Source: Acidobacteriaceae bacterium (GTDB lineage: Bacteria; Acidobacteriota; Terriglobia; Terriglobales; Acidobacteriaceae). Taken from it: DNA of 64,000 nucleotides. The stretch is from positions 1 to 64,000 of the forward strand of contig JASHRF010000005.1 in the NCBI GenBank assembly GCA_030037545.1, written 5' to 3'. Position 1 is the first letter of the stretch, and each line of letters opens with the position of its first letter. The notes beneath the pieces are model-generated. The model ran no database searches. It had not been told where the DNA came from and worked only from the letters and a program-made list of their open reading frames with translations. A program made the translations under genes and the position numbers. Below, piece after piece: positions 57,353 through 62,497 of this stretch.

Positions 57353-60300
57353 ATGACCGGCCGTCTGCCCACTTCCGACCAGCTCCCCGACCCGTTCGCC
57401 TGCTTCCATCCCGTCACGGCGGCGTGGTTTCGCGCGGTTTTCGATGCGCCCACCGCGCCGCAGCGCATGGGCTGGCCGGTCATCGCTCGCGGCGAGAACG
57501 CGCTCATCCTGGCGCCCACCGGAACGGGCAAAACGCTGGCCGCGTTTCTGTGGTGCCTCGACCGGTTGATGCTGGGAGACAGGGACAATGGGACAAAGAG
57601 ACAAGGGGACAAAGCCACCCCACGGTCCGGCAATGAGCAGCGCGGCTGCCGCATTGTCTATGTTTCGCCGCTCAAAGCGTTGGCGGTCGACGTCGAGCGG
57701 AACCTGCGCTCGCCGCTGGCCGGCATCGCCAATATGGCGCGCCGCATGGCTGTTCCGTTTCGCGAGCCAGCCATCAGCGTGCGCACCGGCGACACGCCGC
57801 AGCGCGAGCGCGCCCGCTTTGCGCACCGCCCGGCCGACATCCTTATCACCACCCCCGAGTCGCTCTACCTCATCCTCACTTCGCGAGCCGCCGAGGCACT
57901 GCGAACCGTCGACACCGTCATCATCGACGAGATTCACGCCCTGGTGCCCACCAAGCGCGGCGCGCATCTTTCGCTGACTCTTGAACGGCTGCAGGCGCTG
58001 ACGGCCCGGTCGCTGCAGCGCATCGGGCTCTCCGCCACGCAACGCCCGCTTGAAGAGGTAGCGCGGTTTTTAGGCGGAATCGAAATACAGGGACAAAGGG
58101 ACAAAGGGATAGAGGAACAAAGAGAACTGGGATCAGGGATTAGGGATCAGAGGTCGGAAAAGGCCGAACTCGAGACTTCGGAATCGCCCAGCGGCGCAGT
58201 GGAAGTCCGTGTCCCTTTGTCCTTGTGTCCCTCTGTCCCTGAGGACGCAGAAGCGTTCGCCCTCCGCTACCGTCCCGTCACCATCGTCAACGCCGTCGCA
58301 CCCAAGCAGCTCAAGCTGCGCATCGAAGTCCCTGTCGAAGACATGGCGCGCCTGGGCGAGATGGAGGAGATTCCCTCCGGACCGGCCTCGCAGACGCCGC
58401 GCCGCATTTCGATCTGGAACGCGATTCACCCGCGGCTGCTGGAGATGATCCGCGCCCGCAATTCGACCATTTTGTTCGTGAATGCGCGACAGATCGCCGA
58501 GCGGCTGGCCGGCGCGCTTAACGACCTGGCCGGAGAGCCCATTGCCCGCGCCCATCACGGCTCGCTGGCCGCGGCGCAGCGCTCGGTGATCGAGGAGCAA
58601 TTAAAAGCCGGACAGATTCGTGCCCTCTGCGCCACTTCCACGCTCGAATTAGGCATCGATATGGGCGCCGTCGATCTCGTCATCCAGATCGAGTCACCGC
58701 CCTCGGTCGCCAGCGGCATGCAGCGCATCGGCCGCGCCGGCCATCACGTGGACGCCGTCAGCGAAGGCGTTCTCTTTCCCAAGTATCGCGCCGACCTGGT
58801 CGCCTGCGCCGCCGTCACTCGCGCCATGCACGAAGGTCGTATCGAGTCCACGCGCTTCCCCCGCAATCCGCTTGACGTCCTCTGCCAGCAGTTGGTAGCG
58901 ATCGTAGCGCACCCGCCGGCGAAGGCAGCGAACAGGGGAGCGAGAGAACAAGAGTACAAGGGAACGAGGGAACAAGGGAACGAGAAAATACGAACTGCCG
59001 GAAGAAATGGCAAACAGTCAAGAAACTTGGGTGCCCCCGGTCTCGATTTTGAGACCGGGAAAACCGCATCTCCCGAAGTCCCCGTCGATTTTCTCTTCGA
59101 CCTGGTCCGCGGCGCCGCGCCCTTCGGTTCCCTCACCCGCTCCGCCTTCGAAGGTGTCCTCGACCTGCTCAGCGGCCGTTATCCTTCCGACGAATTCGCC
59201 GAGCTGCGCCCGCGCCTCACCTGGGACCGCATCCGCAACGTAGTCTCTGCGCGCGAGGGCGCGGCGCGGTTGGCAATTCTCAACGCCGGCACCATCCCCG
59301 ATCGCGGACTCTACGGCGTGTTTCTTGCCTACACCGACGGCAAAGCCGTGCGCGTGGGCGAGCTCGACGAGGAGATGGTCTTCGAATCGCACCCCAACGA
59401 GACCTTCATTCTCGGCGCGTCCACGTGGCGCATCGTCGATATCACGCATGATCGCGTGACCGTAACGCCCGCCCCCGGCGAGCCCGGCAAAATGCCTTTC
59501 TGGAAAGGCGACGGACCCGGCCGGCCGCTGGAGTTTGGCCGCCGCATCGGCGCCATGGTGCGCGAGCTGCGCGCGTTGCCGCAACCGGCCGCGCTCACCC
59601 GCCTGGTCGCCGAGCACGATCTCGATCCCGGCGCCGCAGAAAATCTGCTGCGCTTTCTCGCCGACCAGGCCGAAGCCACCGGCCAGGTTCCCGACGACCG
59701 GACGATTGTGATTGAACGGACGCGCGATGAGCTGGGCGACTGGCGCGTCTGCGTGCTCTCGCCTTTCGGCAGCCGCATACACGTTCCCTGGGCCATGGCG
59801 GTGAGCGCGCGCATCCGCGCCGCCGGCGGTCCGGAGGTGGAAACGCTGTGGGGCGACGACGGTTTTGTGCTGCGCTTCCCCGATACCGATGAGCCGCCCG
59901 ACTCCGATTGGATTCTGGTCGAATCCGCCGAAGCCATGCAGCTTGTGCTGCGCCAGCTTGGCTCAACCGCGCTCTTTGCCGGGCGTTTTCGCGAGGCTGC
60001 CGGGCGCGCGCTCTTGCTGCCGCGCCGCCGCGCCGATCAACGCTCCCCGCTTTGGCAACTGCGCAAGCGCTCTTACGATCTGCTCGGCGTGGCCTCGCGC
60101 TATCCGTCGTTCCCGCTCCTGCTTGAGGCCTATCGCGAGTGCCTGCGCGATGTCTTCGACATGCCGGCGCTCATCGAAACCCTGCGCGCCATCGAGCAGC
60201 GCCAGGTGCGGGTGCATGTCGTCGAAACGCGCAAGCCGTCTCCTTTCGCATCCTCGCTGCTGTTCAGCTACGTTGCCAATTTTCTTTATGACGGCGATGC

Positions 60301-62497: not shown

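What the first reader, a model, noticed from the sequence alone, without database searches (positions are those of the whole stretch)
57353..62497. lhr helicase gene carries four in-frame repeat insertions
Three octamer-array segments and one palindromic element lie within a single 1714-codon gene, each at a hydrophilic junction between conserved helicase blocks, with frame kept and motifs I, II, III and VI intact. Rickettsia palindromic elements are an established example of repeats inserted in frame in genes. Four hits from two unrelated repeat classes in one gene is striking and suggests either tolerated surface loops or a recombination hotspot.
Basis: partly seen in the sequence, partly recalled or inferred. 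Interest (0 to 1): 0.82.

Follow-up and report, generated by a model that had tools for sequence, protein, structure and literature searches.

The report
Repeat-filled loops in Lhr repair helicase
In a soil-type bacterium, the gene for a DNA-repair helicase carries several kinds of genome-wide repeat DNA that are read in frame as probably floppy loops of the protein, and related species hold different repeats at the same loops; single cases of such in-gene repeats were known, but I found no report of one gene being refilled like this.

Summary
Confirmed and extended. ORF 57353-62497 is a full-length, intact Lhr. The four inserts are real and in frame; solved M. smegmatis Lhr sequences lack or shorten them. 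Insert 2 is a convergent pair of G-rich 7/8-mer arrays (58088-58241), insert 3 also holds a hairpin of a third repeat class, and insert 4 is an inverted dimer of a REP/TIR-type unit that flanks two REP-associated tyrosine transposase genes in the same genome. Across 85 rows (two broken loci left out), strict G-rich arrays number 59 in loops 1-3 (26 kb), 0 in loop 4, 0 in 368 kb of other Lhr, 20 in 795 kb of flanks. Loop length and repeat type differ between sister species, yet 83 of 86 loci keep one open frame. AlphaFold2 gives the cores of all four inserts pLDDT below 50 and no helix or strand. Best reading: dispersed repeats enter or persist in tolerated loops while purifying selection holds the frame. 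In-frame repeats in repair genes are a known kind; several repeat classes refilling the same loops of one gene across a family is the new part. Preferred target or just tolerance: unresolved. Not shown: translation, mobility, function.

The parts
57353..62497 (+). lhr gene, 1714 codons, open frame
   Evidence: NCBIfam PRK09751 1305 bits (below its cut-off of 1496); Pfam DEAD, Helicase_C, WH_Lhr, DEAD_assoc, WH2/WH3/WH4_Lhr over cut-off
57515..57538 (+). helicase motif I, residues 55-62
   Evidence: invariant in A1 except residue 58
57926..57937 (+). motif II (DEIH), residues 192-195
   Evidence: invariant in A1
58031..58039 (+). motif III (SAT), residues 227-229
   Evidence: invariant in A1
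58721..58744 (+). motif VI, residues 457-464
   Evidence: invariant or nearly so in A1
57573..57614 (+). insert 1: sense G-rich octamer array between motif I and the next conserved block
   Evidence: relatives; matches outside lhr
58088..58241 (+). insert 2: convergent inverted pair of G-rich arrays bounded CAGGGA...TCCCTG, between motif III and the second helicase domain
   Evidence: RNA fold z -4.66
58090..58123 (+). insert 2 left arm, sense octamers
58129..58153 (+). insert 2 inner heptamer run (GGGATCA type)
58206..58239 (-). insert 2 right arm, antisense octamers
58942..58985 (+). insert 3: sense G-rich octamer array after the second helicase domain
59030..59059 (+). insert 3: GGTGCCCC hairpin element (third repeat class)
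   Evidence: 3 other copies, each with 3 mismatches, in the same genome
61603..61772 (+). insert 4: inverted dimer of a REP/TIR-type unit, between WH3 and WH4
   Evidence: DNA fold z -3.83
56290..56356 (+). intergenic copy of the insert 4 unit, between ispD and ispF
   Evidence: (86% over 70 nt to the insert 4 of L108)
62573..62610 (.). intergenic partial copy of the insert 4 unit, just after lhr
   Evidence: pair I2 (71% complementary to 61598-61635)

Best explanation
lhr encodes an Lhr-type repair helicase, and four probably disordered loops of it have been filled by dispersed repeat DNA of three classes: (a) G-rich 7/8-mer arrays, alone or as convergent inverted pairs; (b) GGTGCCCC hairpins; (c) inverted dimers of a REP/TIR-type unit associated with REP tyrosine transposases. 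The repeats enter (class c presumably through the transposase; a and b by an unknown route), lengthen a loop, and are kept only when the frame stays open. The sites look old in the clade and their contents turn over by loss, expansion and replacement. Shown: identity, positions, dispersal, open frames, turnover. Inferred: expression, disorder in the real protein, surface position, mobility, neutrality.
For: Intact Lhr. Gaps in the M. smegmatis sequences at these places. Dispersal: 77 of 240 loop sequences of at least 45 nt match DNA outside Lhr at E<1e-5, against 0 of 411 conserved Lhr segments; with unbiased flanks only, 59 of 240 against 0; 84 of 240 match a loop of another position. Arrays: 59 in loops 1-3, 0 in 368 kb of other Lhr, 20 in 795 kb of flanks. 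Turnover: fewest changes of array presence 6, 12 and 11 (looser pattern) or 6, 11 and 8 (strict) in loops 1, 2 and 3; loop length differs in 46 of 76 sister comparisons; octamers and heptamers start at the same nucleotide in different species (5 and 5 of 17 rows in loop 1; 3 and 8 of 24 in loop 2). Frame: 83 of 86 orthologue loci have one open frame over the part held; of the three exceptions two break outside the loops and one has X residues at loop 3. Disorder: pLDDT below 50 at residues 80-84, 86-93, 248-300, 537-569 and 1412-1472. Transposase link: NF047646 over cut-off for two ORFs flanked by inverted copies of the insert 4 unit.
Against: Low pLDDT also follows from a thin, unlike alignment at the inserts. 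No protein or RNA data. Tolerance alone does not explain why lhr carries 4 of the at least 11 in-gene arrays found in this genome while each of the 7 other array-bearing genes shows one. Loop 4 has no G-rich array in any of 82 rows, so the loops are not equally open to all repeats. Insert 4 is only 70% like its best long copy in the same genome, so its placement rests on structure and on its better-kept ends (about 90% over about 34 nt).
Confidence: 0.82

Rival explanations
1. lhr is a preferred target, a hotspot: its DNA or its function attracts these repeats more than other genes with equally tolerant loops, for example through exposed single strands or because weakened repair favours the repeat.
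For: Array density in loops 1-3 is roughly 90 times that of the flanking DNA (2.2 against 0.025 per kb). lhr holds 4 of 133 arrays of this genome (expected 0.16, Poisson P 2.7e-5; post hoc, since lhr was picked by the finding) and 4 of the at least 11 that lie in genes. UvrC, another repair gene, also has one. A bias of in-gene REPs to repair genes is in print (PMC3733652, section 15 read).
Against: A stretch of contig C79 holds 5 arrays in the same length. No equally loop-rich control gene was compared. Shared sites can be inherited. The flanks are presumably mostly coding, so the fold excess over intergenic DNA is smaller. The other genomes counted were picked because their Lhr has arrays.
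Confidence: 0.2
2. The loops and their repeats are selected as protein: the charged, flexible segments tune Lhr (DNA binding, spacing of domains), and repeats are raw material.
For: Arrays in the loops are mostly in the hydrophilic sense: 46 sense to 13 antisense; Kyte-Doolittle mean -2.17 sense, 0.87 antisense for arrays elsewhere in the genome.
Against: Contents and lengths are not conserved even between sisters with tree distance 0.04. Many orthologues have short loops. Sense bias follows from tolerance alone. Four of 24 same-genus genomes show no close Lhr at all, so the gene itself may be dispensable (drafts).
Confidence: 0.08
3. Contingency locus: 7- and 8-nt units are not multiples of three, so slippage would switch lhr on and off.
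For: Unit lengths 7 and 8. Three of 86 loci are not in one frame.
Against: The three breaks are not array slips as far as seen: L077 near residue 842 and L100 between residues about 1627 and 1651, both outside the loops; L134 in three pieces with X residues at loop 3. The arrays are short and impure, so slippage should be slow.
Confidence: 0.04
4. Assembly artefact or decaying pseudogene.
For: The genome is a draft of 128 contigs, 88.73% complete.
Against: The same loops carry repeats in many separate assemblies; motifs are kept; 83 of 86 loci are open.
Confidence: 0.03

Closest known systems
Intragenic REPs in DNA-repair genes and TIR/TIRYT elements (PMC3733652; sections 15 and 16 and passages read)
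   Same: Palindromic units, dimers, inside repair genes; different REPs at about the same site of recB in two Xanthomonas species; TIRYT transposases named in four Acidobacteria.
   Different: Lhr is not among the genes named in those sections; here several unrelated repeat classes share four loops of one gene across a family. I did not compare sequences with the TIRs of that paper.
G-rich quadruplex-forming heptamer repeats of Xanthomonas and Nostoc (PMC4692102; passages, part of the abstract included)
   Same: GGGA-type 7-mers, mainly intergenic, 7-11% in genes in Xanthomonas, convergent inverted pairs (70 cases in Xcc and 75 in Xac reported).
   Different: Octamers are at least as common here; recurrence in one gene is not in the passages seen; quadruplex formation was not tested.
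Rickettsia palindromic elements (PMC2229807; passages seen)
   Same: Short palindromic repeats read in frame inside conserved genes, one gene product shown active with its insert.
   Different: Other host and repeat classes; most of the inserts here are tandem arrays.
M. smegmatis Lhr, PDB 5v9x and 7lhl (sequence alignments)
   Same: Same domain order over the aligned parts.
   Different: Inserts 2 and 3 missing and insert 1 shorter in both; insert 4 missing in 7lhl (5v9x ends before it).

Membership tests
Lhr helicase (full-length) | DEAD and Helicase_C domains, Lhr winged helix, DEAD_assoc, C-terminal WH2-WH4 | tested here: met
   all over Pfam cut-offs; the NCBIfam PRK09751 score is below its equivalog cut-off
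REP/TIR element of a REP-associated tyrosine transposase (insert 4) | several copies in the genome, palindromic, inverted dimer | tested here: met
   12 further matches at 11 places, 40 of 150 candidates scored; inverted arms; fold
REP/TIR element of a REP-associated tyrosine transposase (insert 4) | unit flanks a Y1 REP transposase gene as inverted copies | tested here: met
   2 of 7 Y1 loci of the genome; NF047646 117.8 and 106.5 bits, cut-off 80
REP/TIR element of a REP-associated tyrosine transposase (insert 4) | moved by that transposase | not testable with these tools
   needs an assay
G-rich quadruplex-forming repeats (Xanthomonas/Nostoc type) | G-rich heptamer units | tested here: inconclusive
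   heptamers GGGATCA present, but octamers are at least as frequent
G-rich quadruplex-forming repeats (Xanthomonas/Nostoc type) | mainly intergenic, around 10% in genes | tested here: met
   at least 11 of 133 arrays in Pfam-supported genes; lower bound, not each array tested on its own
G-rich quadruplex-forming repeats (Xanthomonas/Nostoc type) | convergent inverted pairs | tested here: met
   15 of 15 opposite-strand pairs within 400 bp are convergent: 7 in the own genome, lhr insert 2 among them, 3 in G015, 5 in a truncated list of G003
G-rich quadruplex-forming repeats (Xanthomonas/Nostoc type) | quadruplex formation | not testable with these tools
   needs spectroscopy
Rickettsia palindromic element | occurs in Rickettsia | tested here: not met
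   nearest relatives are Acidobacteriaceae
Rickettsia palindromic element | RPE sequence family | not tested
   no RPE sequence was compared

The most novel reading that the evidence does not exclude
Lhr is a true target and not only a tolerant bystander: unrelated repeat families repeatedly enter the same four loops of a repair helicase (and UvrC) because repair genes are favoured, either mechanistically (single strands handled by Lhr near its own gene) or by selection on the repeats to damp repair of their own hairpin or quadruplex structures.
Probability: 0.12. Interest if true: 0.78.

Novelty: new variant of a known kind. Interest (0 to 1): 0.52.

Why it matters
It offers a family-wide natural experiment on how repeat DNA becomes protein: one gene, four sites, three repeat classes, many species, with short-loop orthologues as controls. 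It also extends the reported bias of in-gene REPs towards DNA-repair genes to Lhr and UvrC in an Acidobacteriaceae genome, and makes the choice between tolerance and targeting testable.

Tried and rejected
Pseudogene or assembly error: rejected (83 of 86 loci open; motifs kept).

Simple local slippage as the sole origin: rejected, because arrays in lhr match DNA elsewhere and share a CA-GGGA start with part of the other arrays of the genome (26 of 57 have CA before the first unit).

Protein-level conservation of the inserts: rejected.

Controls and counts that failed or were replaced: the reverse and complement controls (7 each against 11) are poor; the outside-DNA control (392 of 411) was contaminated by broken Lhr frames and was redone, where at the looser E<1e-3 it still gave 22 of 411 and at 1e-5 gave 0; the loop 1 count dropped short loops and was redone; the array counts (63 in loops, 26 in flanks) took the broken loci L077 and L134 twice and were redone without them; the heptamer pattern also catches octamers, so types were reassigned, where a few heptamer calls may be chance. 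The looser array pattern also hits 15 times in 350 kb of other Lhr. Looser signatures for the other repeat classes have a high background, and I draw no counts from them.

Stop-codon filtering: arrays outside lhr are open in 152 of 171 sense and 146 of 171 antisense frames, random window segments in 933 of 1140, so the frame filter on short arrays is weak.

G4 and phase-variation roles: considered, no support beyond sequence.

Not in print, as far as searched: (open-access library only, judged by listings) showed no paper on repeats in Lhr. Ogata et al. 2002 (PMC186582) is not held; what I say of Rickettsia elements comes from passages of PMC2229807.

Full report
What is there. The ORF 57353-62497 is a full Lhr: DEAD, Helicase_C, WH_Lhr, DEAD_assoc and WH2-WH4 domains. 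It matches M. smegmatis Lhr (PDB sequences 7lhl and 5v9x). Both lack query residues 243-307 and about 526-575 and are shorter around 75-95; 7lhl, which also covers the C-terminal half, lacks 1412-1475. Neighbours are ispD and ispF upstream and a formamidopyrimidine-glycosylase-type gene downstream. Relatives named by record titles are mostly Acidobacteriaceae or other Acidobacteriota; the nearest is 92% identical over 1458 columns.

The inserts. Insert 1 is a sense octamer array. Insert 2 is an inverted pair: sense octamers and heptamers on the left, antisense octamers on the right, with termini CAGGGA and TCCCTG; folded as RNA it has z -4.66. Insert 3 is a sense octamer array followed by a GGTGCCCC hairpin that has 3 other near copies in the genome. 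Insert 4 is an inverted dimer (DNA fold z -3.83) with 12 further matches at 11 places in the genome (only 40 of 150 first-look candidates were scored). In the window 5 of 11 strict arrays lie in lhr, and shuffles average 0.1. Of 7 other array places of the window that I tested, none shows coding potential on both sides in one frame.

The repeats in the genome. Three patterns gave 205 hits, merged to 133 arrays. lhr holds 4, expected 0.16; a stretch of contig C79 of the same length holds 5. I tested 58 distinct places and then 60 arrays not covered by them; neighbouring arrays within a place were not all tested on their own. With Pfam support the arrays inside genes are: lhr (4), a P-type ATPase, MnmG, an LptC/LptD protein, a GHMP kinase, a DinB/FGE-sulfatase protein, a dihydrouridine synthase and UvrC; positions are. 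That is at least 11 of 133. It is a lower bound: the coding test has a threshold, and five candidates without Pfam hits and three were not counted. Opposite-strand pairs within 400 bp were convergent in 7 of 7 cases here, 3 of 3 in G015 and 5 of 5 in the truncated list of G003; same-strand pairs also occur. The same convergent arrangement is reported for Xanthomonas GGGAATC repeats (PMC4692102, passages).

Relatives. From 86 loci (80, 6; the 14 other loci were dropped as duplicates) I took 88 ORF rows and aligned them with the window (89 rows). A recheck finds 83 of 86 loci in one open frame over the part held. L077 is broken near residue 842 and L100 (Occallatibacter savannae AB23) between residues about 1627 and 1651, both outside the loops; L134 is in three pieces, with X residues at loop 3. 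The loops range from about a dozen residues or fewer to over 100. They hold sense arrays, antisense arrays, hairpin-derived and TIR-derived peptides, often of different kinds in neighbouring species, while many rows, above all the distant ones, have short loops without repeats. Without L077 and L134, strict arrays number 11 in loop 1, 30 in loop 2, 18 in loop 3, none in loop 4, none in 368 kb of other Lhr and 20 in 795 kb of flanks; 9, 19 and 13 of 85 rows have one in loops 1, 2 and 3. Some of the 85 rows are partial. The flanks are presumably mostly coding, so the excess over intergenic DNA is smaller than the raw ratio of about 90.

Dispersal. At E<1e-5, 17 of 29, 24 of 79, 22 of 80 and 14 of 52 loop sequences (45 nt or more, loops 1 to 4) match DNA outside Lhr, against 0 of 411 conserved Lhr segments (at E<1e-3 the control gives 22 of 411). 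That outside set held loci fetched for their repeats; with unbiased flanks alone the counts are 11, 19, 18 and 11, against 0. Strong matches also link different loops of different species.

History. On a tree of 87 rows (conserved columns only), array presence by the looser pattern needs 6, 12 and 11 changes for loops 1, 2 and 3 (11 of 75, 20 of 76 and 16 of 84 rows); by the strict one 6, 11 and 8. Gains and losses cannot be told apart. In loop 1, 10 of 17 array-bearing rows start the array at the same nucleotide, five with octamers and five with heptamers; in loop 2, 11 of 24 do, three and eight. I read this as old sites with turnover; repeated use of one site is not excluded. Insert 4 of the window lies in the same orientation as in L105 and L108 (72% identity), so it may be one old insertion. 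Loop lengths differ in 46 of 76 sister comparisons, conserved segments in 21 of 94.

Structure. AlphaFold2 models from the window protein and its orthologues (66 and 65 rows) put low-confidence stretches at the insert cores: residues 80-84, 86-93, 248-300 and 537-569 and 1412-1472, without helix or strand. Thin alignment there also lowers confidence, and other low stretches exist (for example 611-618, 714-723 and parts of the C-terminal model). Model quality is moderate (mean pLDDT 73 and 71). Surface position was not measured.

Mechanism. For insert 4 a mover is at hand. The genome has 7 Y1-type loci, and two of them (L242, L244) are flanked by inverted copies of the insert 4 unit and score over the cut-off of the REP-associated tyrosine transposase model. 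For the arrays no enzyme was found or searched for. A link of the GGTGCCCC hairpin to a transposase was not shown: there is one copy some 500 bases from one Y1 match, L243.

What is known. Repeats in frame in genes are established: Rickettsia elements (PMC2229807, passages) and REPs in uvrA, uvrB, recB, dnaE and others (PMC3733652, sections 15 and 16). E. coli Lhr is a helicase and uracil-DNA glycosylase (PMC10953399, abstract). So the components and the principle are known; several classes refilling the same loops of one gene over a family I did not find in print (searches listed under Tried and rejected).

Results against my reading. Loop 4 takes no arrays. One non-lhr stretch has more arrays. 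Of five other genomes counted, all chosen because their Lhr carries arrays, Lhr held 1, 2, 2, 0 and 2 arrays by the single pattern used; G003 was used for pair orientation only. Four of 24 same-genus genomes show no close Lhr. No expression evidence exists.

Noticed in passing
window 34988-35233 and 31230-31384: Two intergenic convergent pairs of G-rich arrays, the same arrangement as insert 2.
   Followed up: partly
window 25111-25162, 41275-41316, 49112-49139: Another degenerate heptamer family (AACTGAG type), less G-rich; origin unknown.
   Followed up: no
L273 (G000:C83:12877): G-rich array in frame inside UvrC, a second DNA-repair gene.
   Followed up: partly
L202 (G000:C33:23038): MnmG carries heptamers directly followed by a GGTGCCCC-type stretch, the same neighbourhood of classes as insert 3.
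   Followed up: partly
L244 1354-1881: The open frame of the REP transposase itself runs into a copy of the TIR unit, giving the same peptide type as Lhr insert 4.
   Followed up: partly
G019:C127:38682-38797: Long, nearly pure octamer array in a relative; a candidate for active slippage.
   Followed up: no
G001:C12, G002:C1:1170333, G005:C18, G008:C22, G009:C6: Some relatives hold a second Lhr-type gene, 31-33% identical; none is among the listed matches of the window genome.
   Followed up: no
G004, G010, G011, G016: Four of 24 same-genus genomes show no close Lhr match (99, 89, 96 and 87% complete).
   Followed up: no
L077 and L100: Lhr split into two frames near residue 842 (L077) and between about 1627 and 1651 (L100), outside the loops; pseudogene or assembly error.
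   Followed up: partly
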